Shown here one piece after another: positions 1,923-29,357 of a stretch of 42,118 nt of DNA (the first letter of the stretch is position 1; the number at the start of each line of letters is the position of its first letter). The notes beneath the pieces are model-generated. The model saw only the letters and a program-made list of their open reading frames with translations, had not been told where the DNA came from and did not search any database. The translations under genes and the position numbers were made by a program. Origin of the DNA: an uncultured Modestobacter sp. (GTDB lineage: Bacteria > Actinomycetota > Actinomycetes > Mycobacteriales > Geodermatophilaceae); the NCBI RefSeq assembly GCF_947486615.1, contig NZ_CANKUD010000018.1, positions 1 to 42,118 of the forward strand. The letters run 5' to 3'.

Positions 1923-1925
1923 CGC

Positions 1926-2011
1926 AGGACCCCCTCGCCCCCGCCCCTCTACCCGGCCCCCTCGCAGGGCCCCGCCGCGAGCCTGCGAGCGGTGGGGGGC
2001 GAGGGGGTCCT
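1926..2011. terminator. Structured repeat A, copy 1, between convergent genes
   Basis: An intergenic element separates the convergent acyl-CoA dehydrogenase and SDR genes. Its outer 17-bp arms (1926-1942 and 1995-2011, starting AGGACCCCC) are perfect. Within it, 1955-2010 is a 56-bp unit that recurs at 16985-17040 (reversed, 52/56 identical) and 29298-29353 (45/56). The unit folds as CCCCCTCGC/GCGAGGGGG outside CCCCGCCGC/GCGGTGGGG with a 10-nt loop. Differences between copies are largely compensatory. It probably works as a U-less terminator, perhaps for both directions. Confidence 0.75.
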
Positions 2012-2015
2012 TTGA

Positions 2016-3095
2016 CTAGGCGGGGGTGTGCTCGGGGCCGGTGCCGCCGTGCAGGAGTGGGCCGGTGTGGCCCTGCCCGCTGCCCAGCGCGGCCACGAAC
2101 TCGCGCAGCAGGTCCCCACCGTTGTGCGTGGCCCGCCAGCCCAGCTCGGTGCGCGCCCGGGTGGTGTCCAGCGGGGGCACGCCGAGGCCGAGGTCCAGCC
2201 AGCCCGGCTCGATCTGCAGCACGCGGGCGAGGAACGCCCCCTGCATGCCGGCGCGCAGCACCGCGGCCGGCACCGGCACCCGCCGGACGCCGAGCGCCCC
2301 GGCCAGCCCGTCGGCGTCGAAGTGGGGCGGCGCGGAGAGGTTGAACGGCCCCGGTGCCCGGCGGTCGAGGATCCGGGCGATCGCGTCGGCGACGTCGTCG
2401 GCGTGCACGAACCCCAGGTGCAGCGAGCCCGGCAGCGGCAGCGGCAGCAGCTTCGCCACCGCGCCGGGCAGGGCGCGGGCGGCCGGGAAGGCGATCGGGC
2501 CGAGGAAGTAGCGGCCGATCTCGCTGGCCGCGTCGGGCTGCAGCACCAGCGTCGGGCGGGTCACCGAGACGGTGACGTCGGGGTGCGCGGCGTCGAACTC
2601 GGCCACCATCCGCTCGCACTCGACCTTCTGCCGGCTGTACTGCGAGCTGGGCACCCCGGTGGCCGGCCAGTCCTCGCCCACCGGGTGGGTCTGCGGGCCG
2701 GCGGCGTAGGTGCCGATCGAGGACATGTGCACCACATGCGGCACCCCGGCTGCGCCGGCGGCGGCCAGCACCCGGCGGGTGCCCTCGACGTTCACCGCGT
2801 GCAGCACCTCGGGCTCGCGGTCGGGGACGAGCGCCCACGCCAGGTGCACCACGGCGTCGACCCCGTCCAGGAACTCGGCCAGCACCGGCTCGCTGTCGGG
2901 GGACTGCAGGTCGGCGCTGTACCAGCGCACGCCGGCGTAGGGCTCGGTCTGCGGTGGCCGCCGCCGGGCGAGGCCCCGGACCTCGGTGACGCCGGCCTCG
3001 GCGAGCCGGCGCAGCAGCGCCGTCCCGACGTTGCCGCTCGCGCCGGTGATCGCCACGGTCATGCCGGGGAGGAGCCTGCCGGGTGTCTCAGCCAT
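2016..3095 (-). CDS. NAD-dependent epimerase/dehydratase family (extended SDR)
   Basis: The 359-residue protein has an N-terminal Rossmann motif (VAITGASGNVG, residues 14-24), a DAVVHLAW segment and the SDR active-site pair in SSQYSRQKVECE (Tyr and Lys four apart). These mark an extended short-chain dehydrogenase of the nucleotide-sugar epimerase/dehydratase superfamily. The substrate cannot be read from sequence. The ATG at 3095 overlaps the last 8 bases of the upstream hydrolase gene, so the two are likely translated from one message. A second possible start (MTVAITG) lies 11 codons further in. The stop is followed within 2 nt by AAAGGACCCCC of repeat A copy 1. Confidence 0.85.
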   Translation of the reverse strand: MAETPGRLLPGMTVAITGASGNVGTALLRRLAEAGVTEVRGLARRRPPQTEPYAGVRWYSADLQSPDSEPVLAEFLDGVDAVVHLAWALVPDREPEVLHAVNVEGTRRVLAAAGAAGVPHVVHMSSIGTYAAGPQTHPVGEDWPATGVPSSQYSRQKVECERMVAEFDAAHPDVTVSVTRPTLVLQPDAASEIGRYFLGPIAFPAARALPGAVAKLLPLPLPGSLHLGFVHADDVADAIARILDRRAPGPFNLSAPPHFDADGLAGALGVRRVPVPAAVLRAGMQGAFLARVLQIEPGWLDLGLGVPPLDTTRARTELGWRATHNGGDLLREFVAALGSGQGHTGPLLHGGTGPEHTPA

Positions 3096-3954: not shown

Positions 3955-3989
3955 GCCGGGTCTGTGCCCGCTGGAGCGGAGGCCCACGC

Positions 3990-6560: not shown

Positions 6561-6715
6561 CCTCGCTGTGCCTGCCTCTCGTGGTCCCCGTCCGTGGTGA
6601 CGCGGCCAGTGTGTGGGCGGTTGCTCTGCGTGACGACCGCTCCTCACCCATCCGAGTCGATCTTGGTGTGGGGGTGTTTGGTGCACCACGTGCCGGCGTC
6701 GGGGACGATGGAGCC

Positions 6716-7273: not shown

Positions 7274-7278
7274 TCACC

Positions 7279-9452: not shown

Positions 9453-9488
9453 GGGTTGTCAGAAGCCCGGACCAGGTAGGAGAGGGCC

Positions 9489-9770: not shown

Positions 9771-9789
9771 CCCCACGCCCGGCCCCGCC

Positions 9790-9901
9790 CGGCCATGTTG
9801 GCCAACATGGCCGGACGGGCGGCTCCGCGAACATGGCCGGACGGCGGGCGGCCCCGCTGACATGGCCGGACCGAGAGCGGCCATGTTGGCGAACATGGCC
9901 G
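9790..9901. repeat. Palindrome cluster B between convergent genes
   Basis: This region has one perfect 22-bp palindrome at 9791-9812 (GGCCATGTTGG followed by its exact reverse complement). A near-perfect copy at 9879-9900 differs only at the centre (TTGGCGAA). Two half copies end in ACATGGCC at 9831-9838 and 9860-9867. ACATGGCCGGAC occurs three times exactly (9805, 9831, 9860). The cluster fills the gap between the convergent small-protein and bphP genes. Another perfect copy is at 15310-15331. Possible roles are a terminator array, a REP-like repeat or a protein-binding site. Confidence 0.85.
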
Positions 9902-9909
9902 CTGGTGGG

Positions 9910-15249: not shown

Positions 15250-15308
15250 ACCACCCCCGCTTCCTGAACCACCCCCGCTTCTGAACCACCCCCGCTTCTG
15301 AACCACCC
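15243..15308 (+). repeat. Tandem 17/18-bp repeats between pruB and pruA
   Basis: There are three consecutive units: 15243-15260 and 15261-15278 (both TTCCTGAACCACCCCCGC) and 15279-15295 (the same less one C). A partial fourth unit starts at 15296 and runs into the palindrome. The first unit overlaps the pruB stop codon. Each unit carries TGA. The array has no hairpin of its own. Confidence 0.9.
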
Positions 15309-15332
15309 CGGCCATGTTGGCCAACATGGCCG
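15309..15332. repeat. Palindrome B, perfect copy inside proline operon
   Basis: A 24-bp perfect palindrome consists of C, then GGCCATGTTGG, its reverse complement, then G. It is identical in core to the copy at 9791-9812. It lies 27 nt upstream of the pruA start, in the same-strand gap between pruB and pruA, so it could act as an intra-operon attenuator, RNA processing site or protein-binding site rather than a plain terminator. Confidence 0.85.
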
Positions 15333-15358
15333 CCACCCGACCGCAGGAGCTGCACCTC

Positions 15359-16984
<1,626 letters not shown>

Positions 16985-17040
16985 GGACCCCCTTGCCCCC
17001 CACCGCTCGCAAGCTCGCGGCGGGACCCTGCAAGGGGGCC
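16985..17040. terminator. Structured repeat A, copy 2 (reverse orientation)
   Basis: This 56-bp unit is 52/56 identical to 1955-2010 when reverse-complemented. One C-G pair of the outer stem is T-A here (CCCCCTTGC/GCAAGGGGG). The other two differences are a loop change and a change that leaves a wobble pair. It begins immediately after the pruA stop codon and is the likely pruA terminator. Confidence 0.78.
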
Positions 17041-17049
17041 GGCGAGCGA

Positions 17050-17082
17050 CCTCGGTGAGTGGCGCTCCGCCACTCACCGAGG
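17050..17082. terminator. Perfect 15-bp hairpin after gluconokinase gene
   Basis: The arms CCTCGGTGAGTGGCG and its exact reverse complement have a 3-nt loop CTC. The hairpin is 9 nt beyond the gluconokinase stop. With repeat A copy 2, each of the two convergent genes has its own hairpin. Confidence 0.75.
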
Positions 17083-17091
17083 GCACGGTGC

Positions 17092-17640: not shown

Positions 17641-17696
17641 GTGCCGACCGTAGGCAGTCGGGCGCACGGTTGTGAACCGGGGCGGGGGCTTGACGG

Positions 17697-18872
17697 GTGA
17701 CGACGACGGAACGGCGTGCCTCGCTGTGGCGCCTGCCGGCGGTGCGCTCCCTGTTCGCGCTGAACGCGCTGGGCTTCCTCAGCTACTCGCTGCTGCTGTC
17801 GGCGCTGCCCGCCCATGCCGCCTCGCTCGGCGCCGGGCTGACCGCGGCCGGGTCGGTCACCACGGTGTTCCTGGTCGCCACCGTGCTCGCCCAGACGGCG
17901 GTGCCGGCGCTGGTCGCGCGGCTGGGCATCGGCCCGGTGCTCGCCGCCGGGCTGGTCGCGATCGGGGCGCCGTCGCCGCTGTACCTGCTCGCCGACGACG
18001 TGCGCTGGTTCGCCGTCGTCTCGGTCGTCCGCGGGGTCGGGTTCGCGGTGATCACGGTGCTGGGCTCCACCGTCGCCGCCCAGGCGGTGCCGCCGGAGCG
18101 GCGCGGTGAGTCGATCGGCATCTACGGCCTGGCGATCTCCGTGCCGACGCTGGCCGCCGTCCCGGGTGGGACGGCGCTGACCCTCGCCGGCCACTTCCCG
18201 GTGGTCGCGGCAGCGGCGGCCGCCCCGGTGCTGGCGCTGGTGTTCGTGCCGGGCCTGGTGCGGGCGCTCGGCCCGCCGGAGGTGACCGCTCCCGGCGGCT
18301 CCCGGGCGGCGGTGTGGGCGGCGGCCGCGCCGTCGCTGGTGCTGCTGGTGGTGACGCTGGCCGGTGGGGGCCTGGTCACCTTCCTGCCGATCGAGCTGCC
18401 CGACGGCGCGCTGGCCGTGGTCGCGCTGCTGGTGTTCGGGGTGAGCACCGGGTTGTGCCGCTGGGGCGCCGGGGTGCTGGTCGACCGGCTGGGGGCGCGG
18501 GTGCTGATGCCCGCGGCGCTGGCCAGCGGGGTGGCCGGACTGCTCCTGCTCGCGCTGGGGCTGCGCGCCGCGGGCACCGGCGGGGCTGCGGCTGTGCTGG
18601 CCGGTGCCTTCGCGCTGGGCATCGCCTACGGCGCGGTGCAGAACCTGACCCTGGTCATCGCGCTGGCCCGGGCCGGTGCCGGGCAGACCACCACGGTCAG
18701 CGCCGTGTGGAACGCCTGCTACGACAGCGGCACCGCGATCGGGGCGCTGGCCGTCGGGGTCGTCGCCGCCCAGGTCGGGCTGTCCACCAGCTACGTGCTG
18801 GTGGCGGTGCTGCTCGCTCTCGCCCTGCCGCTGGCGGTCACGCTGCCCCGCGCCCTGCGCACCGCGGGCTGA
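17697..18872 (+). CDS. MFS transporter
   Basis: The 391-residue integral membrane protein has about 12 hydrophobic segments arranged in two halves, with a central basic/Pro-rich loop near residues 185-205. The pattern (SLFALNALGFLSYSLLLSALP, then LGAGLTAAGSVTTVFLVA) fits drug/metabolite MFS exporters of the YcaD/Bcr type. The substrate is not readable. GTG 17697 is assumed from the position of the first hydrophobic segment. It is divergent from gntK across 56 bp. Its stop is 4 nt from the stop of the convergent small gene. Confidence 0.85.
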   Translation: MTTTERRASLWRLPAVRSLFALNALGFLSYSLLLSALPAHAASLGAGLTAAGSVTTVFLVATVLAQTAVPALVARLGIGPVLAAGLVAIGAPSPLYLLADDVRWFAVVSVVRGVGFAVITVLGSTVAAQAVPPERRGESIGIYGLAISVPTLAAVPGGTALTLAGHFPVVAAAAAAPVLALVFVPGLVRALGPPEVTAPGGSRAAVWAAAAPSLVLLVVTLAGGGLVTFLPIELPDGALAVVALLVFGVSTGLCRWGAGVLVDRLGARVLMPAALASGVAGLLLLALGLRAAGTGGAAAVLAGAFALGIAYGAVQNLTLVIALARAGAGQTTTVSAVWNACYDSGTAIGALAVGVVAAQVGLSTSYVLVAVLLALALPLAVTLPRALRTAG

Positions 18873-18882
18873 CGGCTCAGCC
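18867..18882. terminator. Mini-hairpin spanning two convergent stop codons
   Basis: GGCTGA (18867-18872) pairs with TCAGCC (18877-18882) around CGGC. Both TGA stop codons lie in the stem. The stem is only 6 bp, so terminator function is uncertain. Confidence 0.35.
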
Positions 18883-19248
18883 GGCGGTGGCCTGGTCGCC
18901 CAGCCGCTCCCGGACCGTCTCGGCGAGCCGCTCGACCATCCGGACCTCCTCGGCGGACGCCCGCAGCCACGAGCGCAGCCCGTCGACGTCGCGGCGGTTC
19001 GCGTCGCGCAGCTGACCGAGCAGCACTTGCCGGCTGCTGGACTGCGCGCGCATCGCCGTGGGCAGCGTGCGGCCGGTGCGGCGGGCGGTGGTGGTCAGCG
19101 CGGCCCCGACGAACGCCAGCTCCCGGGGGTCGGACAGGCCGGCGAGCAGCGCCTCGGCGTCGTCGGTGCGCCCGTCGGCGATCAGCTGCAGGTACTCGGC
19201 GGCGCGGCGGGCGCCGGTGTCGGCGGGGGACTCAGACGGTGCGGTCAC
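18877..19248 (-). CDS. Hypothetical helical protein
   Basis: The 123-residue soluble protein looks almost entirely alpha-helical (AAEYLQLIADGRTDDAEALLAGL; EEVRMVERLAETVRERLG). It has no cysteine, signal peptide or known motif. The middle part is rich in Ser, Thr and Arg. It begins 14 nt downstream of the enoyl-CoA hydratase stop, so it is likely the last gene of that unit. I do not recognise a family; a tetratricopeptide-like or protein-binding role cannot be judged from sequence alone. Confidence 0.7.
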   Translation of the reverse strand: MTAPSESPADTGARRAAEYLQLIADGRTDDAEALLAGLSDPRELAFVGAALTTTARRTGRTLPTAMRAQSSSRQVLLGQLRDANRRDVDGLRSWLRASAEEVRMVERLAETVRERLGDQATAG

Positions 19249-19262
19249 CCCTCCACTGTCCC

Positions 19263-20057
19263 TCAGCGCCCGGACCAGCGTGGTGGCCGCTTCTCCAGGT
19301 AGGCGGCGATGCCCTCGCGGCGGTCCTCGCTGAGGTAGGGGTTCGGCCCGACGTCCAGCCGGAGCGCGGCCGACAGCGGCAGCTCCACGCCCTTGACCGC
19401 GGTCTCCTTCATCCGCCGCACCGACAGCGGCGCGTTCGCCGCGATCCGCTCGGCCAGCGCCAGCGCGGTCGGCAGCACCTCCTCGACCGGGACGACGCGG
19501 TTGACCAGCCCCCAGCGGGCGGCGTCCTCGCTGGTCACGTACTCGCCGGTGAGCAGCATCTCCAGGGCGATCCCCATCGGGACGCGCTTGGGCAGCACGA
19601 CCGAGCCGTAGTTGGCGCCCATGCCGATGGTCGCCTCCGGCAGGCCGAGCTTGATGCCGGGGGCGGCGACCCGCAGGTCGCAGGCCAGGGCCAGCTCGAA
19701 GCCGCCGGCGACCGCGTGCCCGCCGAGCGCGGCGACGACCGGGACGTACGTCTCGCCGAGCACCTCGAAGAGATTGCGGCCCGGCCGGCTCATCGGCGGC
19801 CGGAAGTGCTCACCGCGCTGGTCGCGCTCCCGGATCTCCTTGAGGTCGAAGCCGGCGCAGAAGGCCGGCCCGTTGCCGGTCAGCACGATCGCCCGCACGT
19901 CGGCGTCCTCGGCGCAGGACAGCAGCTCCTCGACCAGGTCGGCCTGCAGGTCGCTGGAGAGCGCGTTGCGGCGCTCGGGGCGGTCCAGGGTGAGCACGCG
20001 GACGTGCCCCCGGGTCTCGGTGACCAGTCCCGACTCGCGGCGCTGCGGTTCGCTCAT
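19263..20057 (-). CDS. Enoyl-CoA hydratase/isomerase
   Basis: This is a 264-residue crotonase-fold protein. Both catalytic glutamates of true hydratases are present: GGFELALACDL and GLPEATIG. The oxyanion-hole segment is AFCAGFDLKEIRERD. It should hydrate a 2-enoyl-CoA; the chain length or specific pathway is unclear. The frame is open far upstream over the ANTAR gene, but ATG 20057 and MSEPQRRESGLVTETRG mark the start. It lies 29 nt downstream of the GAF-ANTAR gene and 14 nt upstream of the hypothetical gene. Confidence 0.88.
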   Translation of the reverse strand: MSEPQRRESGLVTETRGHVRVLTLDRPERRNALSSDLQADLVEELLSCAEDADVRAIVLTGNGPAFCAGFDLKEIRERDQRGEHFRPPMSRPGRNLFEVLGETYVPVVAALGGHAVAGGFELALACDLRVAAPGIKLGLPEATIGMGANYGSVVLPKRVPMGIALEMLLTGEYVTSEDAARWGLVNRVVPVEEVLPTALALAERIAANAPLSVRRMKETAVKGVELPLSAALRLDVGPNPYLSEDRREGIAAYLEKRPPRWSGR

Positions 20058-20086
20058 GGCCGTGATCCTGCCCGGTCGCCGGCCGG

Positions 20087-20812
20087 TCAGCTCGAGGGGA
20101 GCTCGCCGGTGCGCACGAACTGCTCGGCGATGTCGCGCACCTTGGTGTTGGTCTCCATCGACAGCTGCGCCAGCGCGGAGAAGGCCCGGTCGGCGGAGAG
20201 CTTGTGCCGCTCCATCAGGATGCCCTTGGCCTGGTCGATGACCGCCCGGGAGTCCAGCGCCGCGCGCAGGTGCTCGGCCCGCTCGACCGCACTCTCGTAC
20301 AGGTACATGTTCGACACCGGGACCACCGCGTAGGCCGCGAACCGGGCGGTCAGCTCCCGGGTGCGGGCGTCCAGCGGGTCGTCGGTGCGGGCGTAGACGT
20401 TCAGCCCACCGGAGATCAGCTCCTGCGGGGGCAGCGGGAAGGACAGCATGCTCCGGCAGCCGCGCTGGGCGGCCAGCTGCGGGAACGATCCCCAGCGCCG
20501 GTCGGCGCCGGTGTCGACCACCTCGACCAGGTGACCGCTGGTGGCCGCCTCCATGCAGGGGCCGGCGCCCAGGGCGTACTGCGCCTGGTCGAGCTGGCGG
20601 GCGAGGGGCCCACTGGCGGCCACGGTGGCGGGCGGGCCGTCGCCGATGATGGTCACCGAGGTGACCGGCTCGCCGGGGAGCACCCGGGCGGCCAGGTCGG
20701 TGACCTTCTGCAGCACAGACTCCAGCGAGTGCTCGGCGAAGGACATCCGGCCCAGCTCGTCGAAGGCGAGCTGGACGACGTCGGCGTCGGGATCGGGGGT
20801 GGGGCGAGTCAC
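20087..20812 (-). CDS. GAF-ANTAR RNA-binding regulator (paralogue 1)
   Basis: The 241-residue protein has a GAF sensor (about 20-170, ALGAGPCMEAATSG) and a C-terminal ANTAR helical domain (about 180-235, DSRAVIDQAKGILMERHKLS). ANTAR domains bind paired RNA hairpins and act as antiterminators. GTG 20812 is the assumed start. It is divergent from a close paralogue 350 bp away, and the two share nearly the same ANTAR sequence. A candidate -10 (TATGCT, minus strand) lies at 20954-20959, giving a leader of about 135 nt. The ligand of the GAF domain is unknown. Confidence 0.88.
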   Translation of the reverse strand: MTRPTPDPDADVVQLAFDELGRMSFAEHSLESVLQKVTDLAARVLPGEPVTSVTIIGDGPPATVAASGPLARQLDQAQYALGAGPCMEAATSGHLVEVVDTGADRRWGSFPQLAAQRGCRSMLSFPLPPQELISGGLNVYARTDDPLDARTRELTARFAAYAVVPVSNMYLYESAVERAEHLRAALDSRAVIDQAKGILMERHKLSADRAFSALAQLSMETNTKVRDIAEQFVRTGELPSS

Positions 20813-21159
20813 GGTGGTACTCCGGCGTCAGGTGGCACCGGACAGCGCGTGTGCCGGCGGATGTGGAGCCCGGGGAGACCCCGCGGGCCCTGCGGGACGG
20901 GACCCACGGGATCCCGCTGCCGCACGCCGGCTGTGTGACGCGGAGGCTGGACGAGCATAACCAGCAGTTGATCGTGTCCTCGGCAGGCTGTCTGCCGCGC
21001 GTGCGCGCCCCTGAGGAGAGCCCGTGAGCGGGTAGTATCCGCCGTGGTGCCGGGGAGACCCGGCGCCGTGCGTCAGACAGCGGCGTGCGTGTGTGCGGGC
21101 CCCATCGTGGGGCTCTCGCCGAGGCTGCCGCCCCGGTGGACCACAGACCGGAGTCCGAC
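20813..21159. promoter_or_regulatory. Divergent region of the two GAF-ANTAR genes, structured leaders
   Basis: There are two outward -10-like elements: TATGCT on the minus strand (20954-20959) and TAGTAT on the plus strand (21033-21038). The plus leader contains a 9-bp stem closed by a GAGA tetraloop (GGTGCCGGG/CCCGGCGCC, 21046-21067, one wobble) and, about 40 nt on, the short hairpin GCCCCA/TGGGGC. These could be targets of the RNA-binding ANTAR proteins themselves; the loops do not obviously match the published hexaloop pattern. Confidence 0.45.
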
Positions 21160-21894
21160 GTGCCCGCTGACGGCCATGTGACCGATCGCGCCAACGCCGC
21201 GTTAGAGCAGCTCGGCGGGTTGGCGCTGCGCGACCACTCGATGGAGTCGGTGCTGCAGACCGTCGCCGACCTCGCCAAGGAGGTCCTGCCGGGCCGGCTG
21301 GAGACGTCGATCTGCCTGCTGCAGAACGACCGGGCGAGCACGACGGTGTCCACCGGTCAGCTCGCCCTCGACATGGACGAGAGCCAGTACGGACGCGGCC
21401 ACGGGCCCTGCCTGCACGCCGCGGCCACCGGCGAGCTCACCGAGATCCCCGACACCCGCGTCGAGCGGCGCTGGCCCGACTACGCACGCGTGGCCTGGGA
21501 GCGGGGCAACGGCAGCTCGCTGTCCGTGCCGCTCCCCATCCAGGAGTCGGTGCGCGGGGCGCTCAACATCTACGCCGGTCAGCCGCACGCCTTCGACGAC
21601 GAGGCCCGGGCAGCCGCGCAGCGGTTCGCCCCCTACGCCGCCGTGGCGGTGGCCAACATGCACGCGTACGAGACCGCCCGGGGCATGGCCGACAACCTCC
21701 AGGTCGCCCTGGAGTCACGTGCCGTCATCGACCAGGCCAAGGGGATCCTGATGGAGCGGCACAAGCTGACCGCCGACCAGGCGTTCCAGGCGCTGGCCGC
21801 GGTGTCGATGCGGCGCAACCGCAAGGTGCGCGACATCGCCGACCAGCTGGTGCGCACCGGCGAGCTGGACGCCGAGCGGCCCTCCGGGACCTGA
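21160..21894 (+). CDS. GAF-ANTAR RNA-binding regulator (paralogue 2)
   Basis: The 244-residue paralogue of the divergent gene has a GAF domain with GRGHGPCLHAAATG and an ANTAR domain with SRAVIDQAKGILMERHKLT. The frame opens at 21085. I prefer GTG 21160 because the length then matches the paralogue and CCGGAG lies upstream; a GTG at 21178 is also possible. A conserved Cys in GPC appears in both GAF domains. A hairpin at 21987-22018 lies about 90 nt beyond the stop. Confidence 0.87.
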   Translation: MPADGHVTDRANAALEQLGGLALRDHSMESVLQTVADLAKEVLPGRLETSICLLQNDRASTTVSTGQLALDMDESQYGRGHGPCLHAAATGELTEIPDTRVERRWPDYARVAWERGNGSSLSVPLPIQESVRGALNIYAGQPHAFDDEARAAAQRFAPYAAVAVANMHAYETARGMADNLQVALESRAVIDQAKGILMERHKLTADQAFQALAAVSMRRNRKVRDIADQLVRTGELDAERPSGT

Positions 21895-21986
21895 ACACCG
21901 CCTCGGTGACGCCTGGTTGGGGCACCGTGGGTGAGGGCAGAAACCCGAGCAGGGGCCGTCTGTGTGCCGGCACTCAGGGGACCCCA

Positions 21987-22018
21987 GGCTCGGTGGTCGA
22001 ATCGACGGCCACCGAGCC
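21987..22018 (+). terminator. 10-bp hairpin after GAF-ANTAR gene
   Basis: The arms GGCTCGGTGG and CCACCGAGCC are perfect with a 12-nt loop. The hairpin lies in the 280-bp gap before tRNA-Lys. The rest of that gap shows no gene I can support. Confidence 0.45.
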
Positions 22019-22135
22019 GCCTCGCCCGGGAGCCCATCCGGGTCGGCCACGCGATCCGAACACCTGCCGGTCGCGCCGTCCCCGCTGCCCCTGGAGGGCG
22101 GCGTGACCCTCGTCGGGACGCCCCCCAGACGACGA

Positions 22136-22166
22136 AACGGCCCCGTCCGAGGTGGACGGGGCCGTT
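22136..22166 (-). terminator. tRNA-Lys terminator
   Basis: Perfect 13-bp arms AACGGCCCCGTCC and GGACGGGGCCGTT have a 5-nt loop. On the minus strand the stem ends in TTT. It lies 11 nt past the tRNA 3' end. Confidence 0.75.
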
Positions 22167-22176
22167 CGCGTTGCGG

Positions 22177-22252
<76 letters not shown>

Positions 22253-22446
22253 GTGTCGCGCGGCAGGGCCGGGCAACAGGAGAGGACTCTACACGCCGAT
22301 CCGGCGCCGCGATGAGGTGGGGCCGGACACCGCGACATGTCCTCGGACACATCCAACTGTCAGCGGGAGCGTGTTCACTGGAGTGCGGCGCACCCACCGG
22401 GAGGGTCCCGGACCGGGTGCGCGCCGGTACAGGAGGCAGGGTCTTC
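22253..22446. other. Divergent region, tRNA-Lys/L,D-transpeptidase
   Basis: These 194 bp must hold the tRNA promoter and the transpeptidase promoter. Only the AGGAGG before the transpeptidase start is clear; I see no convincing -35/-10 pair. Confidence 0.4.
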
Positions 22447-23640
22447 GTGGGGTCGCACCAGGCGAGACGGATCGCCGCAGTGCTCATCGCCGTCCTGCTC
22501 GCGTTGCTCGCGGGCTGCTCGGGGTCGTCCGACGACGAGAGCGAGGCCGCGGCGTCGTCGTCGTCCGCCCCGCCGGCGGAGCTGACGCTGAGCCTGGCCG
22601 ACGGCGCCGTCGACGTGCCCCCGACCACCCCGCTGGAGGTCACGGTCACCGGTGGGGAGCTCGGCGACGTGACCGTCGTCGACGCCACCGGCACCGCGGT
22701 GCCGGGCAGCGTCGCCGCCGGCGAGACGGGCGCGACGGTCTGGACGCCGGAGACCGACCTCGCCTACGGCACCAGCTACACGGTCACCGCGACCGCGATC
22801 AACGAGACCGACGACGAGGCGACGACCGAGTCGACGTTCACCACCGTCACCCCGGGCACGCTGTCCACCCCCGGCATCGGGCCGCTGGACGGCACGACCG
22901 TGGGCGTGGGCATGCCGATCCGGGTCTTCTTCGACGAGCCGGTGGCCGACAAGGCCGCGGTCGAGAGCCACCTGCTGGTGACCTCCTCCGCCCCGACCGA
23001 CGGGGTCTGGAACTGGGTCCGCGACGACGAGGTGCACTTCCGCCCCTCCACCTACTGGCCGGCGAACTCCGAGGTCACGCTGGAGGCCGACCTGTACGGG
23101 GTCGACTTCGGCGAGGGCGTGTGGGGTGAGAAGGACCGCACGGTGTCCTTCTCCGTCGGTGCGAAGCACGTGAGCGTCGCCGACGCGGCCGCGCACACGC
23201 TGACCGTCTACGACGGCGACCAGCTGGTGCAGAGCTGGCCGATGAGCGCCGGCAGCGCGGAGAACCCGACCCACAACGGGGCGCACGTCGTGCTGGAGAA
23301 GTTCGCCGACATCACCATGGACTCCTCGACGTTCGGCCTGGCCGTGGACGCCCCCGGCGGCTACCGCACCGACGTCGAGTACGCCACGCGCATCTCCAAC
23401 AACGGCGAGTTCGTGCACGCCGCCCCGTGGTCGGTGGCCGACCAGGGCTCGGCGAACGTGAGCCACGGCTGCATCAACCTCGCCACCGAGAACGCCCGGT
23501 GGTTCTACGACTTCTCCCAGCCCGGTGACGTGGTGGAGGTGGTCAACTCCATCGGCGGCACGCTGACCGCCGCCGACGGCGACATCTACGACTGGGCCAT
23601 CCCCTGGGACCAGTGGACGGCCGGCAGCGCGCTGTCCTGA
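22447..23640 (+). CDS. L,D-transpeptidase lipoprotein (Ig-like domains + YkuD)
   Basis: This is a 397-residue lipoprotein. After a basic start comes a hydrophobic helix and the lipobox LLAGC (Cys24), then a Ser/Ala-rich linker. Two Ig-like domains (about 45-140 and 140-240) precede a YkuD catalytic domain (about 240-370) whose signature SHGCINL carries the nucleophilic Cys. This is the layout of mycobacterial LdtMt2-type enzymes, which make 3-3 peptidoglycan cross-links and resist most beta-lactams apart from carbapenems. The GTG start is set by AGGAGG about 10 nt upstream and by the signal peptide. A strong hairpin follows the stop. Confidence 0.92.
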   Translation: MGSHQARRIAAVLIAVLLALLAGCSGSSDDESEAAASSSSAPPAELTLSLADGAVDVPPTTPLEVTVTGGELGDVTVVDATGTAVPGSVAAGETGATVWTPETDLAYGTSYTVTATAINETDDEATTESTFTTVTPGTLSTPGIGPLDGTTVGVGMPIRVFFDEPVADKAAVESHLLVTSSAPTDGVWNWVRDDEVHFRPSTYWPANSEVTLEADLYGVDFGEGVWGEKDRTVSFSVGAKHVSVADAAAHTLTVYDGDQLVQSWPMSAGSAENPTHNGAHVVLEKFADITMDSSTFGLAVDAPGGYRTDVEYATRISNNGEFVHAAPWSVADQGSANVSHGCINLATENARWFYDFSQPGDVVEVVNSIGGTLTAADGDIYDWAIPWDQWTAGSALS

Positions 23641-23649
23641 CCAGCTGAG

Positions 23650-23690
23650 CACAGGAGGCCGCGACCCACTCCGGGTCGCGGCCTCCTGTG
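23650..23690. terminator. Perfect 18-bp bidirectional terminator
   Basis: The arms start CACAGGAGGCCGCGACCC and pair perfectly with the right arm around a 5-nt loop. The hairpin is centred between the convergent transpeptidase and DUF1353 genes, 9 and 4 nt from their stop codons. Confidence 0.85.
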
Positions 23691-23694
23691 CGTC

Positions 23695-24237
23695 TCAGAG
23701 CCGCAGCCCCCGGTCCTGTCGCCCTCCCTCGCCAGCGACGAGCCGGCTGACCACCGCCTCGACGGCGGTGTAGGCGCCCAGGGCCACTGCGATGACCGCA
23801 GCCGGTGGGACGACGAGCGGTGCGGCCAGCACCGACAGGCCCAGCAGCCGCGGGACGTCGAGCCACCAGCCGGGGCGGCGCACCGGGTTGGCCAGGGCGG
23901 ACCAGCGCACCCCGCACCACATCAGCCAGCGGCGCACCGGGGGCACCCCCAGCTCGCGCATCACCCGGCGGAAGAGGCCGTCGGCGTCCCGGGCGGAGAC
24001 GGCCCCGGCGGCGATTCCGACGTCGGTCAGCCAGTCGTGCAGCACCGCGGCCAGCGTGTAGCGCCCGAACCGGGGGAACAGCCACACCGCGACCCGGGGC
24101 ACCGAGGCGAAGTCGGTGCGGAAGCCGACCGGGACGACGAAGGTGTCCCGGCGCCCGCGGTAGGTCAGCGGCTCGAGGACCTCCCACGACTGGTCGGTGA
24201 CCCGCCGGACGGTCAGGGTGGGGGAGTCGAAGGGCAC
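23695..24237 (-). CDS. DUF1353 family protein with C-terminal hydrophobic segment
   Basis: The 180-residue protein's N-terminal half matches the DUF1353 pattern: VPVGFRTDFASVPR and LAAVLHDWLTD, with a conserved His-Asp pair. A hydrophobic stretch near residues 130-155 (LGLSVLAAPLVVPPAAVIAVALG) may anchor it in the membrane. DUF1353 is found in phage and bacterial genomes and has no established function. The start is GTG 24237. No phage genes surround it. Confidence 0.78.
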   Translation of the reverse strand: MPFDSPTLTVRRVTDQSWEVLEPLTYRGRRDTFVVPVGFRTDFASVPRVAVWLFPRFGRYTLAAVLHDWLTDVGIAAGAVSARDADGLFRRVMRELGVPPVRRWLMWCGVRWSALANPVRRPGWWLDVPRLLGLSVLAAPLVVPPAAVIAVALGAYTAVEAVVSRLVAGEGGRQDRGLRL

Positions 24238-24663
24238 GGCTCGTCACTTCCCGTCGAGCCGCGGCCCACACCCAGCGGGGGATGGACAGATGCCCTGGTC
24301 AGCCGGCCGACCACGCCATCCCGCCGGCACGGGCGCCCGGATCGGGAGCGGCGAGGTCAGATCGTGGCGGCTCGCAGGTCCAGATCCGGCCCGTGGCAGC
24401 GTACGGTCGGCGTCAGCACTGACACGTTGAACAAGCGGCGTGTGCTCGTGGGGCCGCACCTCGTGGCCCTCGCCGTGGCCCTCCCCCCCCCCGGTGCCAG
24501 ACCACCGGAGCTGAGACTTGCCACCAGACACCTGTTGCAGCAGCACGATCGCCGCGGAGGGACACGATCCCCTCGCCCTCCCGGTCCATGCGGAGAGCGG
24601 CTGCCGGACCGCTGCCTCGGTGACCGGGGCGCGGCCGTGATCGCCGGCGCCCGGCACCAGCTG
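24238..24663. other. 426-bp region without a supported gene
   Basis: Open frames here look like GC-driven shadows. It holds an inverted repeat GTCAGCACTGAC (24412-24423) and a run of ten C at 24483-24492. It probably carries the promoters of the divergent DUF1353 gene and the small gene at 24664. Confidence 0.4.
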
Positions 24664-24906
24664 ATGGACGCCGCCCGGGTCCGGGCCCAGCTCACCCTGG
24701 ACGAGCTCTGGGTCCGGTACGCCGCGCTGACCGGCACTGTCGACGTCATCGACCTGGACGGGTTCCTCGCCGGGCTGATGCTCCTGGAGCCCGGTCAGGA
24801 CGCGGTGCTGACACAGACCCTCAACGAGGCCCTAGAAGAGGCTCACCGGGCGAACCTCGTCCCGCTGTCCCCGTTCGCCGCGGTCAGCACCTCTACGGGG
24901 ACCTGA
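24664..24906 (+). CDS. Small conserved-looking protein, unknown
   Basis: The 80-residue protein is MDAARVRAQLTLDELWVRYA followed by an acidic helical region (DLDGFLAGLMLL...EEAHRANLVPLS). No signal peptide or cysteine. The start is uncertain: ATG 24664 or GTG 24637. I believe similar short proteins with an LTLDELWxRY opening occur in related actinobacteria, but that is recollection, not a search. It stands alone between the 426-bp region and tRNA-His. Confidence 0.6.
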   Translation: MDAARVRAQLTLDELWVRYAALTGTVDVIDLDGFLAGLMLLEPGQDAVLTQTLNEALEEAHRANLVPLSPFAAVSTSTGT

Positions 24907-24973
24907 GCGTCCTCTCGAGCGGGCGGAGCGTCCCGGACGGGTCGATGTCGCTCCCGGTGGCAACGAGGGAGAA

Positions 24974-25010
24974 GAAGAGGCCCCGGTCGTGTTCTGACCA
25001 GGGCCTCTTC
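24974..25010 (-). terminator. tRNA-His terminator
   Basis: Arms GAAGAGGCCC-C-GGTC and GACC-A-GGGCCTCTTC pair with one internal mismatch and a 7-nt loop. The hairpin lies 3 nt past the tRNA 3' CCA; the minus strand ends TTC. Confidence 0.75.
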
Positions 25011-25013
25011 CGG

Positions 25014-25090
25014 TGGGGTGAGTGACGGGACTTGAACCCGCGACATCCAGGATCACAACCTGGCGCTCTACCAGCTGAGCTACACCCACC
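25014..25090 (-). tRNA. tRNA-His (anticodon GTG)
   Basis: The minus strand reads GGTGGGTGTAGCTCAGCTGG, then the anticodon arm CCAGGTTGTGATCCTGG and the T arm CGGGTTCAAGTCCCG. The acceptor stem has the extra G at position -1 paired with C73, as expected of tRNA-His, and CCA is encoded (25014-25016). Confidence 0.96.
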
Positions 25091-25151
25091 ATGCACACCG
25101 GGCGGCTGGCGAGAGCCGGCCCGGTGGACGAGCACACGATACCGGAGACCC

Positions 25152-25832
25152 TCAGCCCTCCGACGAGCCCGGGGTGGCGACCGGTCCAGGGCCGGCTGCG
25201 CCGGCCTCCAGCGCCGGCGCGAACGCCGCCACGACCTCGGCCGACGCGGCCTGCGCCTGCTCGCTGGCCGGTCCGGGCGTGGCCACGAACAGCGTCTTCC
25301 GGTAGTACGCCAGCTCGCGGATCGACTCGAGGATGTCGGCCAGCGCCCGGTGGGCGAGCCCCTTGGGCGGCTGGGCGAAGTAGACCCGCGGGAACCAGCG
25401 GCGGGAGAGCTCCTTGATCGAGGAGACGTCGATCATGCGGTAGTGCAGGTGGTCGTCGAGCTCGGGCATGTCGCGGGCCAGGAAACCGCGGTCGGTGCCG
25501 ATCGAGTTGCCGCACAGCGGGGCGGTGCGGCGCTCGGGCACGAACCGCTTCACGTAGGCGAGCACCTGCTCCTGCGCCTCGGCCAGCGTCACGGTCGAGG
25601 CGCGCACCTCCTCGGTGAGCCCCGACTTGGCGTGCATGTCCCGGACCACGCCGACCATCCCGGCCAGGTCGGCGTCGTCGGCGTGGATGATCACGTCGAG
25701 GCCCGGGTCCAGGACGTTGAGCTCGGAGTCGGTCACCACCACCGCGACCTCGATGAGCTTGTCGCGGGTGAGGTCCAGTCCGGTCATCTCACAGTCGATC
25801 CAGACCAGGTTGTTCGCTGCGCTGTCCGCCAC
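25152..25832 (-). CDS. orn: Oligoribonuclease
   Basis: This 226-residue 3'-5' exoribonuclease degrades di- to pentaribonucleotides, including pGpG from cyclic-di-GMP breakdown. The DEDDh motifs are complete: VWIDCEMTG (Asp13, Glu15), [11 protein letters not shown] (Asp114) and HRALADI (His161, Asp166). A disordered Ala/Pro-rich tail of about 35 residues is longer than in E. coli Orn. GTG 25832 gives the canonical N-terminus. TAGGGT lies 7 nt upstream, suggesting a leaderless mRNA. It would complete the c-di-GMP turnover begun by the GGDEF/EAL protein in this window. Confidence 0.95.
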
Positions 25833-25839
25833 GCGGGCG

Positions 25840-25845
25840 ACCCTA
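25840..25845 (-). promoter_or_regulatory. Candidate leaderless -10 of orn
   Basis: TAGGGT on the minus strand fits TAnnnT and ends 7 nt before the GTG start, the spacing expected when transcription begins at the start codon. No Shine-Dalgarno is present. Confidence 0.45.
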
Positions 25846-25932
25846 CGCACCCGGGCGGGGCACACCCGTCCCACCCGCCCCAGAACCGCCGGTCACGTCT
25901 CGAAATCCACCCGGACGGCTGATCCGCGCCGT

Positions 25933-25938
25933 TACGCT
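25933..25938 (+). promoter_or_regulatory. Candidate -10 of membrane protein gene
   Basis: TACGCT fits TAnnnT and would give a leader of about 27 nt containing CGGAG before GTG 25972. Confidence 0.35.
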
Positions 25939-25971
25939 CTGCCCTCCTGCACCGACCTAGCGGAGTCGCTC

Positions 25972-27195
25972 GTGTCCTCCAGCACGCCCCTCGCGCTGCC
26001 TCCCGGTGCGGTCGCACCGGCGCCGTCCTCCCTCGGTGCCGGGCTCCGGCACCCGGTCGCGCTGCTGCGCTGGCTGTGGCAGGCCCACATGACGCCGGGC
26101 CGGCCCGGGCGGCCGACCGGTCCGGACGAGCTCCGCTGGATCTACACGGCCTGGCTGGTGGCCTTCGGGCTGAAGATGCTCGGCTCCTCCTGGGACGTGT
26201 CCTGGCACTTCAAGTGGCTGCGCGACGACCTCGCCCCGCCGCACCTGCTCAACTCCGCCGGGACGGCGCTGGTCGTCGCTCTCGTGGTCTTCCACAGCTA
26301 CAGCGGTTCCGGCGTCGACCGGCGGGCGCTGCGGCTGATGCAGGCCGGCATCGCCACCTTCCTGCTGGCCATCCCGATCGACCTGCTCAACCACCGCATC
26401 AACGGCCTGGACATCACCAGTTGGAGCCCCAGCCACGCGCTGCTGTACCTGGGGACGGCGATCATGCTGGCCGGGGCGATCCGCGGCTGGTGGCTCTACG
26501 CCGCACCGGGCCGGCTGCGGGACCTGGTCTCCCTGGGGCTGTGGCTGTTCTTCGTGGAGAACGTGCTGTTCCCCAACCAGCACCAGGAGTACGGCGTCCT
26601 CGCCCTGGCCGACTACCGGGCCGGGCGGACCACCGCCGAGCCCTCGCTGCTGGACTTCGCCGCCTCGCAGGGGCAGACCCCGGTCCAGTTCATGCTCCCG
26701 GTGCCCTCCTGGGTGCACCCGGCGTGGCTGATCTGCGCCGGACTGCTCGCCCTGGTGGTCGCCCGCCGGACCGTGGGGCTGCGCTGGACCGCCACCGCCG
26801 TCGCCGGGGTCTACCTCGGCTACCGGTTGGTCACCGGGTGGCTGCTCACCGCCACGGGCTTCCCGCCCTCGGTGGTGCCGATGATGCTGCTGGCCGGGGC
26901 GGTCCTGATCGACCTGGCGGTCACCCGTCGGGTGCCCGGCTGGCTGGCCGGACCGCTGGTCGCCGGGGGAGTGATCGCGGCGGCCCTGGCGCAGTCGGCG
27001 GTCGGCGACATCCCGCCGTGGAACTGGGCCGCCCTGCCGGTGATCGCCGTCGGGTTCGCCGTGCTGTGGGCGGGGCTGGACCGGGTGACGGGCACCGCCG
27101 CGTTCGCCCGCTGGCAGGCGGCGGACGAGTCCGGCCGGGAACGGTCGGGGGACACGCCGGGTCTCCTGGTGGGCGGCGGCGCGTCCTCGCGGTGA
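25972..27195 (+). CDS. Polytopic membrane protein, unknown
   Basis: The 407-residue protein has roughly nine to ten hydrophobic segments spread over residues 50-385. Between them are conserved-looking motifs SSWDVSWHFKW, NHRINGLDITSWSPSHALLY and FFVENVLFPNQHQEYG. His, Asp and Glu residues within these membrane-proximal motifs could bind a metal or heme, but this is inference. The C-terminus is charged and probably cytosolic. GTG 25972 was selected from CGGAG upstream and the position of the first segment. No family recognised with confidence. Confidence 0.75.
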   Translation: MSSSTPLALPPGAVAPAPSSLGAGLRHPVALLRWLWQAHMTPGRPGRPTGPDELRWIYTAWLVAFGLKMLGSSWDVSWHFKWLRDDLAPPHLLNSAGTALVVALVVFHSYSGSGVDRRALRLMQAGIATFLLAIPIDLLNHRINGLDITSWSPSHALLYLGTAIMLAGAIRGWWLYAAPGRLRDLVSLGLWLFFVENVLFPNQHQEYGVLALADYRAGRTTAEPSLLDFAASQGQTPVQFMLPVPSWVHPAWLICAGLLALVVARRTVGLRWTATAVAGVYLGYRLVTGWLLTATGFPPSVVPMMLLAGAVLIDLAVTRRVPGWLAGPLVAGGVIAAALAQSAVGDIPPWNWAALPVIAVGFAVLWAGLDRVTGTAAFARWQAADESGRERSGDTPGLLVGGGASSR

Positions 27196-27220
27196 ACCCG
27201 GGACGGGCCGGTCGATGACG

Positions 27221-27226
27221 TAACGT
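27221..27226 (+). promoter_or_regulatory. Candidate -10 of large single-TM protein gene
   Basis: TAACGT lies within the near-palindrome ACGTAACGT. It would give a leader of about 78 nt before GTG 27311. No good -35 is visible. Confidence 0.35.
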
Positions 27227-27310
27227 CGAGCCGGTCCGCTGCCGAGCCGGCGCGGCCCACCGCGGTCGACGCCCTCCCGCCGCGCCCCGCCGCCTGCCCC
27301 TGGAGAGCCC

Positions 27311-29296
27311 GTGCTGATCCTCACGCCGACGCCGTCCCAGACGGCCGCCGAGCGTGCGTTCTTCGCCGAGCTCGCCGGCTGGGACACCGGCGGTGGCGTG
27401 CGGGGCGCCCTGATGGCCGCCCTGCCCATCGTCGAGGGCCCGATGCAGCGCCGGCAGTCCGACGCCGTGCTCTTCGTCCCCGAGGGCGTCGCCGTCGTCC
27501 GGGTCGTGGAGGTCGAGCGTCAGTCCGGGGTGGTGACCGCGGCCCCGGAGGGCGCCTGGACGATCGGCTCGGGGGAGGGGCCCGGCGACGTCCTGCAGCT
27601 GGCCGGTGGCGGCTCGACCCCGCTCGACGGGCTGATGCGGGCCGGCATGCACGTGGCGGTGACGCTGCGCAAGGCCGGCCTGGAGCCGGGCCGGATCGCC
27701 CGGCTGACCGTGCTCACCGGTGCCGTCACCGGGCTCGTCCCCGCCGACGGCGACCTCGGCGAGGGCGACCAGGTGGCCATGCTCGACTCGCGCTCGCTGC
27801 TGCTCGGCGTGGCCCGGGCCAGCCGGCACGCCGGCACCGACAACCCCCGCCTCTGGACGACGGCCGACGTCCGGGCCGCGGTCGAGGCGCTCGGGGTCGG
27901 TGGACGCACCCCGTCGGTGGAGGAGCTCAACGGTGAGGGGTTCCCGTACTCGCCCTACGTCCTCCGCCGGCCGGACCTGCTGACCCCGGCGGCGCTGAAC
28001 GCCTCACCGGGCCGGATCGCCGCTCCGTCCAGCGGCGGACAGCCCGTGCCCGGGGCCGCCCCGGCGACCGGCACCGAGCTGCCCCGGCTCGCGCCGGGCG
28101 GACCGCTGGTGGACCCGGCGGCCGCCGCCCGGGTCGCAGCCGCGGCCGTCCACGCCCAGGAACAGGCCGAGGCGCAGGCGGACGACCATGCCCAGGCGCC
28201 GGACGGCGCTCAGGCGCAGGACCAGAGCCAGGCCCACGCCCAGGCGGAGGATCGTGCCCGGGCGGACGCTCGTGCCCGGGCGGAGGACCGTGCCCGGGCA
28301 GGGGACCACGGGCGGGCTGCGGCGCAGGACCACGCCGAGGTGCGGACGGCGGAGCGAGCCGGCCGGGGGCCGGCGGTGCCGGTGTCCACCGGCCTCCACA
28401 CCGCGCAGCCGCTCGCCGGAGCCGGCGCGCAGCGGAGCTCGGTGTTCCCGACGGCGCGGGCCGGTGACACGCAGGCGCTCGTCCCCGATCCGCCGGCGGG
28501 CGTCGACCGACCGCACCCGTCCGCGGAGGACACCGGTGGTGGCATCGGCGGGCTGTTCGGCGAGTCCCCGGTCGGGGCGTCGGAGCCCCGGCGCGAGCTC
28601 CCACCGGAGCTGCAGCCGCGCCGTCCCGCCGTCCAGTCGGCGCCGCGCGGCAGCAGCCCCTCCGGGCAGGGCGGGGAGTCGACCGGTCGGGGGCGGGTCC
28701 TCGCGCTGGTCCTGGCCGGGCTGGTGCTGGTCGCGGTGCTCATCGGGTTCGGCGTCCGGTCGTTCGGCGGTGACGACGGCGGCACCGCGAACGCCGACCC
28801 CGGCAGCAGCAGCGCCCCGGCCGAGGAGACCGCTCCGGCCGGCCCGGTCGTGGGGAGCACCGAGGTGGTCAACGGCGTGACCTTCACGCTGCAGGCCACC
28901 CAAGTCGACGCCACCTGCCAGGGCCACGCCTACGACGCGGTCGCCGGGTTCTTCCAGCAGAACGACTGCACCGGGCTCGACCGCTCGCTGTGGTCGGCGC
29001 AGGCCGGCGGCCAGCCGGCGGTCGTCTCGCTGTCCCGGGTGACCATGCCCGACGACGCCAGCGCCCAGGCACTGCGCTCGCTCGCCGACACCGACGGCAG
29101 CGGCAACGTCAGCGACCTGCTGCGGGAGGGCGTCACCTGGGAGGGTGGCCCGACCGCGCTGTCCCGCGCCCAGTACGCCAGCAGCCAGCAGGACGTGACC
29201 GTGACCATCGTGGAGACCTCCTGGACGGGCGAGGCCGGCCCCACCTCCGCGCTGGACGAGCTCGCCAGCTCGGCCCTGTCGCTGCCCGCCGACTGA
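27311..29296 (+). CDS. Large single-TM protein with long low-complexity linker
   Basis: This 661-residue protein has four parts. Residues 1-235 form a globular, probably cytosolic domain with alternating strands (SDAVLFVPEGVAVVRVVEVE) that vaguely recalls nuclease-related NERD domains, without a catalytic motif I can confirm. Residues 235-455 are a disordered Ala/Gln/Arg/Asp linker with repeats such as DRARAD, ARARAE and DRARAG. One TM helix follows (about 463-485, VLALVLAGLVLVAVLIGFGV). Residues 490-661 are probably outside, with two Cys (VDATCQGH, QQNDCTG) that could form a disulfide. GTG 27311 follows TGGAGAG. It ends at repeat A copy 3. Function unknown. Confidence 0.75.
   Translation: MLILTPTPSQTAAERAFFAELAGWDTGGGVRGALMAALPIVEGPMQRRQSDAVLFVPEGVAVVRVVEVERQSGVVTAAPEGAWTIGSGEGPGDVLQLAGGGSTPLDGLMRAGMHVAVTLRKAGLEPGRIARLTVLTGAVTGLVPADGDLGEGDQVAMLDSRSLLLGVARASRHAGTDNPRLWTTADVRAAVEALGVGGRTPSVEELNGEGFPYSPYVLRRPDLLTPAALNASPGRIAAPSSGGQPVPGAAPATGTELPRLAPGGPLVDPAAAARVAAAAVHAQEQAEAQADDHAQAPDGAQAQDQSQAHAQAEDRARADARARAEDRARAGDHGRAAAQDHAEVRTAERAGRGPAVPVSTGLHTAQPLAGAGAQRSSVFPTARAGDTQALVPDPPAGVDRPHPSAEDTGGGIGGLFGESPVGASEPRRELPPELQPRRPAVQSAPRGSSPSGQGGESTGRGRVLALVLAGLVLVAVLIGFGVRSFGGDDGGTANADPGSSSAPAEETAPAGPVVGSTEVVNGVTFTLQATQVDATCQGHAYDAVAGFFQQNDCTGLDRSLWSAQAGGQPAVVSLSRVTMPDDASAQALRSLADTDGSGNVSDLLREGVTWEGGPTALSRAQYASSQQDVTVTIVETSWTGEAGPTSALDELASSALSLPAD
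28250..28303 (+). repeat. 18-nt tandem repeat inside the linker coding region
   Basis: There are three consecutive 18-nt units, each containing CGTGCCCGGGC and encoding DRARAD, ARARAE and DRARAG, followed by a degraded fourth. Codon-in-frame expansion would change linker length without breaking the frame. Confidence 0.8.
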
Positions 29297-29297
29297 C

Positions 29298-29353
29298 GGC
29301 CCCGCTGCAGGGGCCCGCCACGAGCTCGCGAGTGGTGGGGGGCAGCGGGGTCC
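29298..29353. terminator. Structured repeat A, copy 3, between convergent genes
   Basis: This is a 56-bp unit of exactly the same length as copies 1 and 2, 45/56 identical to copy 1. Of 11 differences, eight form four compensated base pairs (unit positions 7/49, 8/48, 9/47 and 23/36), two are in the loop and one breaks a pair. It lies between the 661-residue protein gene and the tetR gene, 4 nt from the tetR stop. Confidence 0.78.
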
Positions 29354-29357
29354 TCTC

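What the first reader, a model, noticed from the sequence alone, without database searches (positions are those of the whole stretch)
1955..29353. 56-bp covarying hairpin element after stop codons (repeat A)
Three exact-length 56-bp units occur at 1955-2010, 16985-17040 (reversed) and 29298-29353. Copies 1 and 2 differ at four positions: one C-G to T-A pair swap, one change leaving a wobble, one loop base. Copies 1 and 3 differ at 11 positions: four full pair swaps (unit positions 7/49, 8/48, 9/47, 23/36), two loop bases and one broken pair. This is strong covariation, so structure, not just sequence, is conserved. In every case the GGGGTCC end abuts the stop codon of a gene reading into it (SDR, pruA, tetR).
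Basis: seen in the sequence. Interest (0 to 1): 0.85.

Follow-up and report, generated by a model that had tools for sequence, protein, structure and literature searches.

The report
Mobile hairpin anchored behind stop codons
A 58-letter repeat, predicted to fold into a hairpin, sits directly behind the stop codons of more than a hundred genes in one actinobacterium, is missing behind some of the same genes in sister species, and likely marks where a gene's message ends.

Summary
The three units are copies of a 58-nt hairpin repeat with 154 matches in this genome. It is in 96 of 103 genomes of the same family, probably Geodermatophilaceae, and rarely outside it. Covariation holds in 29 aligned copies, above all 500 shuffles. 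Placement is far from random: in 114 of 143 copies a coding frame ends at the AAGGACC end, 80 of them exactly 2 nt away (TGAnG-AAGGACC), against 29 of 4000 random positions. The neighbour on the other side runs either way. Copies differ between species in presence and orientation, and nest in one another, one pair inside the window. None of 103 family genomes has a Y1 (REP-type) transposase. I read it as a REP-like mobile hairpin that fills the U-poor hairpin slot behind stop codons and likely ends or shields the message. That function is inferred. Against its simplest form: wobble pairs and folding energies favour the strand antisense to the anchored gene. New variant of a known kind.

The parts
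1955..2012 (+). Copy 1, 58-nt unit GGCC...GGGGTCCTT; faces the TAG stop (2018-2016) of the minus-strand epimerase gene, 3 nt away
1924..1943 (-). Truncated copy facing the acyl-CoA dehydrogenase stop (TGA 1920-1922), tail to tail with copy 1
   Evidence: TGACGCAGGACC, one mismatch to the consensus
16983..17040 (-). Copy 2; its AAGG overlaps the TAA stop (16982-16984) of the plus-strand aldehyde dehydrogenase (pruA-like) gene
29298..29355 (+). Copy 3; fills the 61-nt gap between two convergent stop codons (TGA 29294-29296 and TGA 29360-29358)
39454..39509 (-). Copy 4, 56-nt subfamily, nested inside an interrupted 58-nt copy
39424..39527 (+). Interrupted host copy (its halves about 39424-39453 and 39510-39527); faces the TGA stop (39532-39530) of the minus-strand gene 39530-39880 at the 2-nt spacing
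   Evidence: 27.7 bits
2016..3062 (-). Anchored gene of copy 1, NAD-dependent epimerase/dehydratase (SDR-type)
15314..16984 (+). Anchored gene of copy 2, aldehyde dehydrogenase family, pruA-like
29358..29954 (-). Anchored gene of copy 3, TetR family regulator

Best explanation
This is a family-specific, REP-like repeat of 56-58 nt that lies right behind stop codons in a fixed orientation, likely spreads as a mobile unit, and likely works as a portable U-poor hairpin that ends or shields the 3' end of the anchored gene's message. Shown by the calls: the copies, the anchoring, the compensated pairs, presence/absence and opposite orientations between species, nested copies, and no Y1 transposase. 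Inferred: RNA made at the end of the gene folds into the hairpin about 4 nt behind the stop codon, where RNA polymerase halts or 3' exonucleases are held off, and copies are kept because they supply the kind of hairpin that unrelated sequences supply behind other stop codons of this genome. Unknown: what moves it.
For: Anchoring: 114 of 143 own copies and 60 of 70 sister-genome copies, with a sharp peak at 2 nt (80 and 33), against 29 of 4000 random positions; 46 of 50 high-scoring copies from other genomes face a stop, 33 at exactly 2 nt. Pairing: 7 of 21 pairs with double changes, 0 of 500 shuffles. The same slot is filled by unrelated stems at stops without the element: 52 of 75 convergent and 55 of 158 tandem ends, shuffles 12 and 26; the relatives that lack the element behind pruA mostly show another stem there (by eye). 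Site persistence: 26 of 70 G018 copies stand behind the same gene, same orientation, as an own copy (L404 left out). Mobility: presence/absence and flips, nesting. U-less terminators near stop codons are described for mycobacteria (PMC12288462, passages).
Against: Wobble polarity: outside pairs 2/54 and 20/39 there are 81 G.U against 25 A.C on the GGCC strand, which is antisense to the anchored gene; 37 against 23 without pair 23/36. The GGCC strand also folds better (-43.6, -39.3, -40.3 kcal/mol) than the anchored gene's strand (-37.0, -33.4, -31.8), and in their context the anchored-strand hairpins of the three copies are hardly better than shuffles (z -0.1 to -1.8). No U-tract terminator is called around copies 2 and 3. 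Convergent sites are not significantly enriched after gap matching (p 0.15). 18 of 72 copies with a start codon on the GGCC side lie under 36 nt from it by called starts, so full termination there would cut the next gene off. Many paired copies are no more alike than random copies, as expected of a selfish element too.
Confidence: 0.48

Rival explanations
1. A purely selfish mobile hairpin: an unknown enzyme recognises the single-stranded GGCC strand and inserts beside stop codons, a harmless niche; the conserved imperfections and loops are recognition marks and the host gains nothing.
For: Presence/absence, flips and nested copies; conserved AGGG loop and GAGC loop bases (95-100%) and conserved G.T at 2/54 and 20/39; one-strand wobble bias; copy numbers that differ about twofold within the genus.
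Against: A neutral niche behind genes would give a broad spread over the gap, not 80 of 143 copies at exactly 2 nt. TGA is not enriched as a target word (118 of 137 beside copies, 423 of 448 elsewhere). No Y1 transposase in 103 family genomes; other transposase types were not tested.
Confidence: 0.27
2. A terminator for transcription that runs towards the anchored gene: RNA of the GGCC strand forms the hairpin followed by UCCUUCnUCA and stops convergent or antisense transcription just before it enters the anchored gene.
For: G.U pairs and folding energies favour the GGCC strand; T57 and T58 behind the stem are 100% and 90% conserved; all three window copies lie between convergent genes.
Against: Only 57 of 123 stop-facing copies have a convergent neighbour; not significantly enriched after gap matching; G.T at 20/39 is as common in convergent as in tandem copies (30 of 37 and 30 of 43), and G.T at 23/36 is rarer there (5 of 37 and 14 of 43).
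Confidence: 0.13
3. A translational element: the hairpin flush behind the stop codon delays the terminating ribosome and lowers output of the anchored gene, as reported for E. coli REPs within 15 nt of a stop codon.
For: Sharp spacing; RepRanger passages cite the earlier E. coli work on REPs under 16 nt from a stop codon (PMC12306157, passages).
Against: TGA and TAG copies have different usual spacings (2 nt; 3 or 0 nt), which a ribosome ruler would not predict; wobble polarity favours the other strand.
Confidence: 0.07
4. The covariation is mutational: template switching between the arms of a DNA palindrome rewrites one arm from the other, so the pairing says nothing about RNA function.
For: Outside pairs 2/54, 20/39 and 23/36 G.U exceeds A.C only slightly (37 to 23); in 13 comparable orthologous pairs 28 pairs changed on both sides and still pair, against 8 one-sided changes still paired, 14 one-sided broken and 4 double broken. 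The mechanism itself is recalled, from no call.
Against: The conserved imperfections 2/54 (G.T in 151 of 162) and 20/39 (123 of 162) persist, and such rewriting should have removed them. It does not explain the anchoring.
Confidence: 0.05

Closest known systems
REP elements (GTAG and CGTC super-families, RAYT-associated REPs)
   Same: Short palindromic repeats in many copies, mostly behind genes; REP ends of the GTAG type often provide the stop codon of the flanking ORF (PMC3733652, passages); in E. coli some lie within 15 nt of a stop codon (PMC12306157, passages); palindrome kept through complementary changes (PMC2817692, passages).
   Different: No conserved GTAG or CGTC end, longer (56-58 nt) with a two-part stem, one dominant spacing and orientation, confined almost wholly to one actinobacterial family, and no Y1/RAYT transposase in 103 family genomes.
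U-less 'I-shaped' intrinsic terminators of mycobacteria
   Same: GC-rich hairpin without a U-run soon after the stop codon (PMC12288462, passages); unrelated stems of this sort follow many stops in this genome too.
   Different: Those are defined by function and are not a dispersed sequence family; whether U-less hairpins terminate is disputed in the cited titles; termination was not tested here.
MIRU (mycobacterial interspersed repetitive units)
   Same: Apparently mobile short repeats of actinobacteria placed at codons that border genes.
   Different: MIRUs insert at start codons and carry an ORF that couples translation (PMC12548453, passages); this one is a hairpin behind stop codons and I saw no ORF in its 58 nt.

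Membership tests
REP (GTAG/CGTC super-families) | High-copy palindromic repeat, mainly outside genes | tested here: met
   154 matches; 9 of 143 overlap a called gene
REP (GTAG/CGTC super-families) | GTAG or CGTC at one end | tested here: not met
   Flank beside AAGG is TGAnG; the n varies (G 54, C 34, A 32, T 23 of 143), so neither tag is conserved; GGCC end has none
REP (GTAG/CGTC super-families) | RAYT/Y1 transposase in the genome (GTAG type; CGTC type lacks one) | tested here: not met
   PF01797: 0 of 1 own, 0 of 103 family genomes; control positive in 5 of 14
REP (GTAG/CGTC super-families) | Size 20-40 bp | tested here: not met
   56-58 nt unit
Canonical intrinsic terminator | GC hairpin followed by a U-run | tested here: not met
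   Scan of 16500-29600 (copies 2 and 3) finds none; the tail on the GGCC strand is UCCUU
U-less (I-shaped) terminator | Hairpin within about 50 nt behind a stop codon | tested here: met
U-less (I-shaped) terminator | Ends transcription | not testable with these tools
   needs RNA 3'-end data
MIRU | Insertion at a start codon with an ORF inside | tested here: not met
   Anchoring is to stop codons
Rfam family | Match at the gathering score | tested here: not met
   Only two tRNAs in the window; one sub-threshold ybhL match (18.9 of 50 bits) at 1880-1914, outside copy 1

The most novel reading that the evidence does not exclude
A hairpin without a REP-type transposase whose placement machinery reads the end of translation: it is added behind whichever stop codon is there (TGA, TAG or TAA), not at a DNA word, which makes gene 3' ends a portable module that turns over across a whole bacterial family.
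Probability: 0.12. Interest if true: 0.85.

Novelty: new variant of a known kind. Interest (0 to 1): 0.52.

Why it matters
In the passages I read, GTAG-type REPs come with a tyrosine transposase and CGTC-type REPs have no known mover. Here is an actinobacterial family with very many natural copies, one sharp spacing rule and no Y1 enzyme, so both the mover and the effect of a hairpin flush behind a stop codon become testable by comparing occupied and empty orthologous genes. It also offers a natural test of the disputed U-less terminators of high-GC actinobacteria.

Tried and rejected
Chance palindrome: rejected. Canonical terminator: no U-run around copies 2 and 3 (copy 1 lay outside that scan). 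Convergent-gene terminator as the general role: 57 of 123. RAYT-driven REP: no PF01797; other transposase families were not searched. Rfam element: none. A mover gene between close copy pairs: 19 pairs, 2 not covered by one locus; 20 of the 33 enclosed proteins scanned, 19 with ordinary enzyme or regulator families and one without a family. TGA as a DNA target word: TGA is slightly rarer beside copies (whose adjacency test also admits some GGCC-side neighbours). The element as donor of the whole stop codon: at pruA and the copy-1 gene relatives without it end at the same codon. A tail GTTCCAGCACGTCACC behind the GGCC end recurs in some copies of several genomes and stays unexplained. Literature: (Geodermatophilaceae terms) listed 15 of 1,301, 12 of 2,577, 10 of 140 and 8 of 1,327 papers; no listed title or abstract start describes this repeat, which does not prove that none exists. 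Recalled, from no call: the original E. coli paper on REPs and ribosome stalling, template-switch mutagenesis, ribosome geometry.
Full report
WHAT IS THERE. The natural unit is 58 nt, GGCCCC...GGGGTCCTT; read from the anchored gene it is AAGGACCCC...GGGGCC. The GGCC strand folds as an 11-pair outer stem, an asymmetric internal loop, an 8-pair upper stem and a GAGCnnGCGAG loop. A model of 29 copies (R1) finds two more places in the window: a 56-nt copy at 39454-39509 and, around it, an interrupted copy 39424-39527 that faces the stop of gene 39530-39880. A truncated copy at about 1924-1943 faces the acyl-CoA dehydrogenase, tail to tail with copy 1.

HOW MANY, AND WHERE IN THE TREE. The own genome (4.7 Mb, 36 contigs) gives 154 matches at E<=0.1, fragments included; at most about 150 candidates are scored, and the window's 57-bit copy is missing from the listed rows, so the true number is higher. 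All 23 genomes of the genus match, 16 to 158 times each, and 96 of 103 of the family. Of 298 genomes drawn from the order 61 match: 59 in the same family and two outside it, with two matches and one (stricter filters). The best named relatives of the pruA-like protein are Blastococcus (85 and 86% identity) and Geodermatophilus (82 and 81%), so the family is most likely Geodermatophilaceae (inference).

STRUCTURE. In 29 copies 94.4% of cells pair, 7 of 21 pairs change on both sides (29 cells), no shuffle of 500 reaches this, and slid partners fall to 45-65%. Much of the palindrome is fixed in sequence: over 162 distinct copies the outer four positions are 98-99% conserved, the AGGG loop 95-100%, GAGC 97-99% and GCGAG 91-96%. 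Two imperfections are conserved: 2/54 (G.T in 151 of 162; it can also be read as a one-base bulge) and 20/39 (G.T in 123 of 162). On the anchored gene's strand these are A.C. Outside these two pairs G.U outnumbers A.C on the GGCC strand 81 to 25, mostly through pair 23/36 (44 to 2); without it 37 to 23. In tandem and convergent copies G.T at 20/39 is 30 of 43 and 30 of 37; at 23/36 it is 14 of 43 and 5 of 37. The GGCC strand of all three window copies also has the lower folding energy, and in context the anchored-strand fold is hardly better than shuffles (90, 11 and 17 of 200 shuffles fold at least as well for copies 1, 2 and 3). So if one strand is selected it is the GGCC strand, as RNA or single-stranded DNA, which is against the simplest reading.

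PLACEMENT. I used 143 of the 150 listed copies. A gene caller trained on codon use finds a stop facing the AAGGACC end in 123 of 143; on the other side of those the neighbour starts in 65, stops in 57, and one has none. A direct test for a coding frame that ends between -3 and +12 nt gives 114 of 143 (all between -3 and +9; 80 at exactly 2 nt); in sister genome G018 60 of 70 (33 at 2 nt); at random positions 29 of 4000; at the GGCC end 26 of 143, with a smaller peak of 11 at 1 nt. Among 50 high-scoring copies from other genomes of genus and family 46 face a stop, 33 at exactly 2 nt. By stop codon, TGA copies are mostly 2 nt away; TAG copies mostly 3 in the own genome and 0 in G018. The G before AAGG seems to belong to the element: it is present in 14 of 15 own copies in which I saw no stop triplet nearby (by eye). 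TGA is not enriched as a word (118 of 137 beside copies, 423 of 448 elsewhere).

TURNOVER. Behind pruA, among 22 genomes with a match, own and G003 have a copy, G007 a decayed one, and 19 show none in the printed stretch; the gene ends at the same codon with and without it in all but one printed case. At the copy-1 site own, G001, G003 and G004 have one orientation, G006 the opposite, G002 and G022 none. At the copy-3 site G003 carries a 56-nt type copy facing the other gene. Genome-wide 26 of 70 G018 copies stand behind the same gene in the same orientation as an own copy, where about 2 would be expected if roughly 4,400 gene ends (my assumption) were equally likely; by eye six more gaps hold a copy in the opposite orientation and three a decayed own copy. 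Yet in 13 comparable pairs compensated differences are 2.15 per pair against 3.16 between random own copies, and in only 6 of 26 is the orthologous copy the best own match (mean percentile 0.76). Six copies in the two genomes are clear composites, TGAnGAAGG or TAGAAGG followed by TnG or GGG, a second element, and the rest of the first (by eye). So sites persist while the sequence in them is replaced or rapidly rewritten.

BACKGROUND OF 3' ENDS. Stop codons without a listed copy are also often followed by strong U-poor stems: 52 of 75 convergent ends (shuffles 12) and 55 of 158 tandem ends (shuffles 26), mostly starting within 15 nt of the stop but without a sharp peak (single-base shuffles, and many convergent gaps enter from both sides). 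The element thus occupies a slot that other hairpins fill elsewhere, at a sharper position.

HOW IT MOST LIKELY WORKS. Shown: repeat, anchoring, pairing, species differences, nesting, no Y1 transposase. Inferred: it acts at the 3' end of the anchored gene's message as a U-poor hairpin, as described for I-shaped terminators of mycobacteria (PMC12288462, passages), by halting polymerase or blocking 3' exonucleases. Eighteen of 72 copies with a start codon on the GGCC side lie under 36 nt from it by called starts, which speaks for partial effects or protection more than full termination. A purely selfish reading is the main rival, and the mover is unknown.

KNOWN KINDS. It resembles REP elements in copy number and placement; GTAG REPs are said to often provide the stop codon of flanking ORFs (PMC3733652, passages). 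It lacks the GTAG or CGTC end, is longer, and no RAYT is found, so I call it REP-like and not a member. RepRanger (PMC12306157; abstract, outline and passages) surveys REPs in bacteria and archaea; the family and genus names that I searched do not occur in its main text. MIRUs are described as inserting at start codons (PMC12548453, passages).

Noticed in passing
window 9771-9813, 9859-9901, 15290-15332: Another palindromic repeat, GGCCATGTTGGCCAACATGGCCG, three copies in the window; it also turns up behind an own element copy (C5:203418) and behind other stop codons.
   Followed up: no
window 35641-35766: Six or so tandem 14-nt units (CGCCCGGCGGTGAG) right behind the stop of the gene ending at 35653, followed by a GC hairpin.
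   Followed up: no
L065, L075, L086, L350, L351, L357 and own copies such as C8:22035 and C2:484308: A shared tail GTTCCAGCACGTCACC (read from the anchored gene) follows the GGCC end in some copies of several genomes, mostly where the next gene starts on that side.
   Followed up: partly
G155 (2 matches) and G164 (1 match), outside the family: Isolated strong matches (E 2e-13 and 3e-14) in two other families of the order; transfer or contamination.
   Followed up: no
L312 and L315 (copy-3 site of G002 and G020): Short leftovers such as AAGGAGGACGGGGTCCTT before the stop look like collapsed elements with both ends kept.
   Followed up: no
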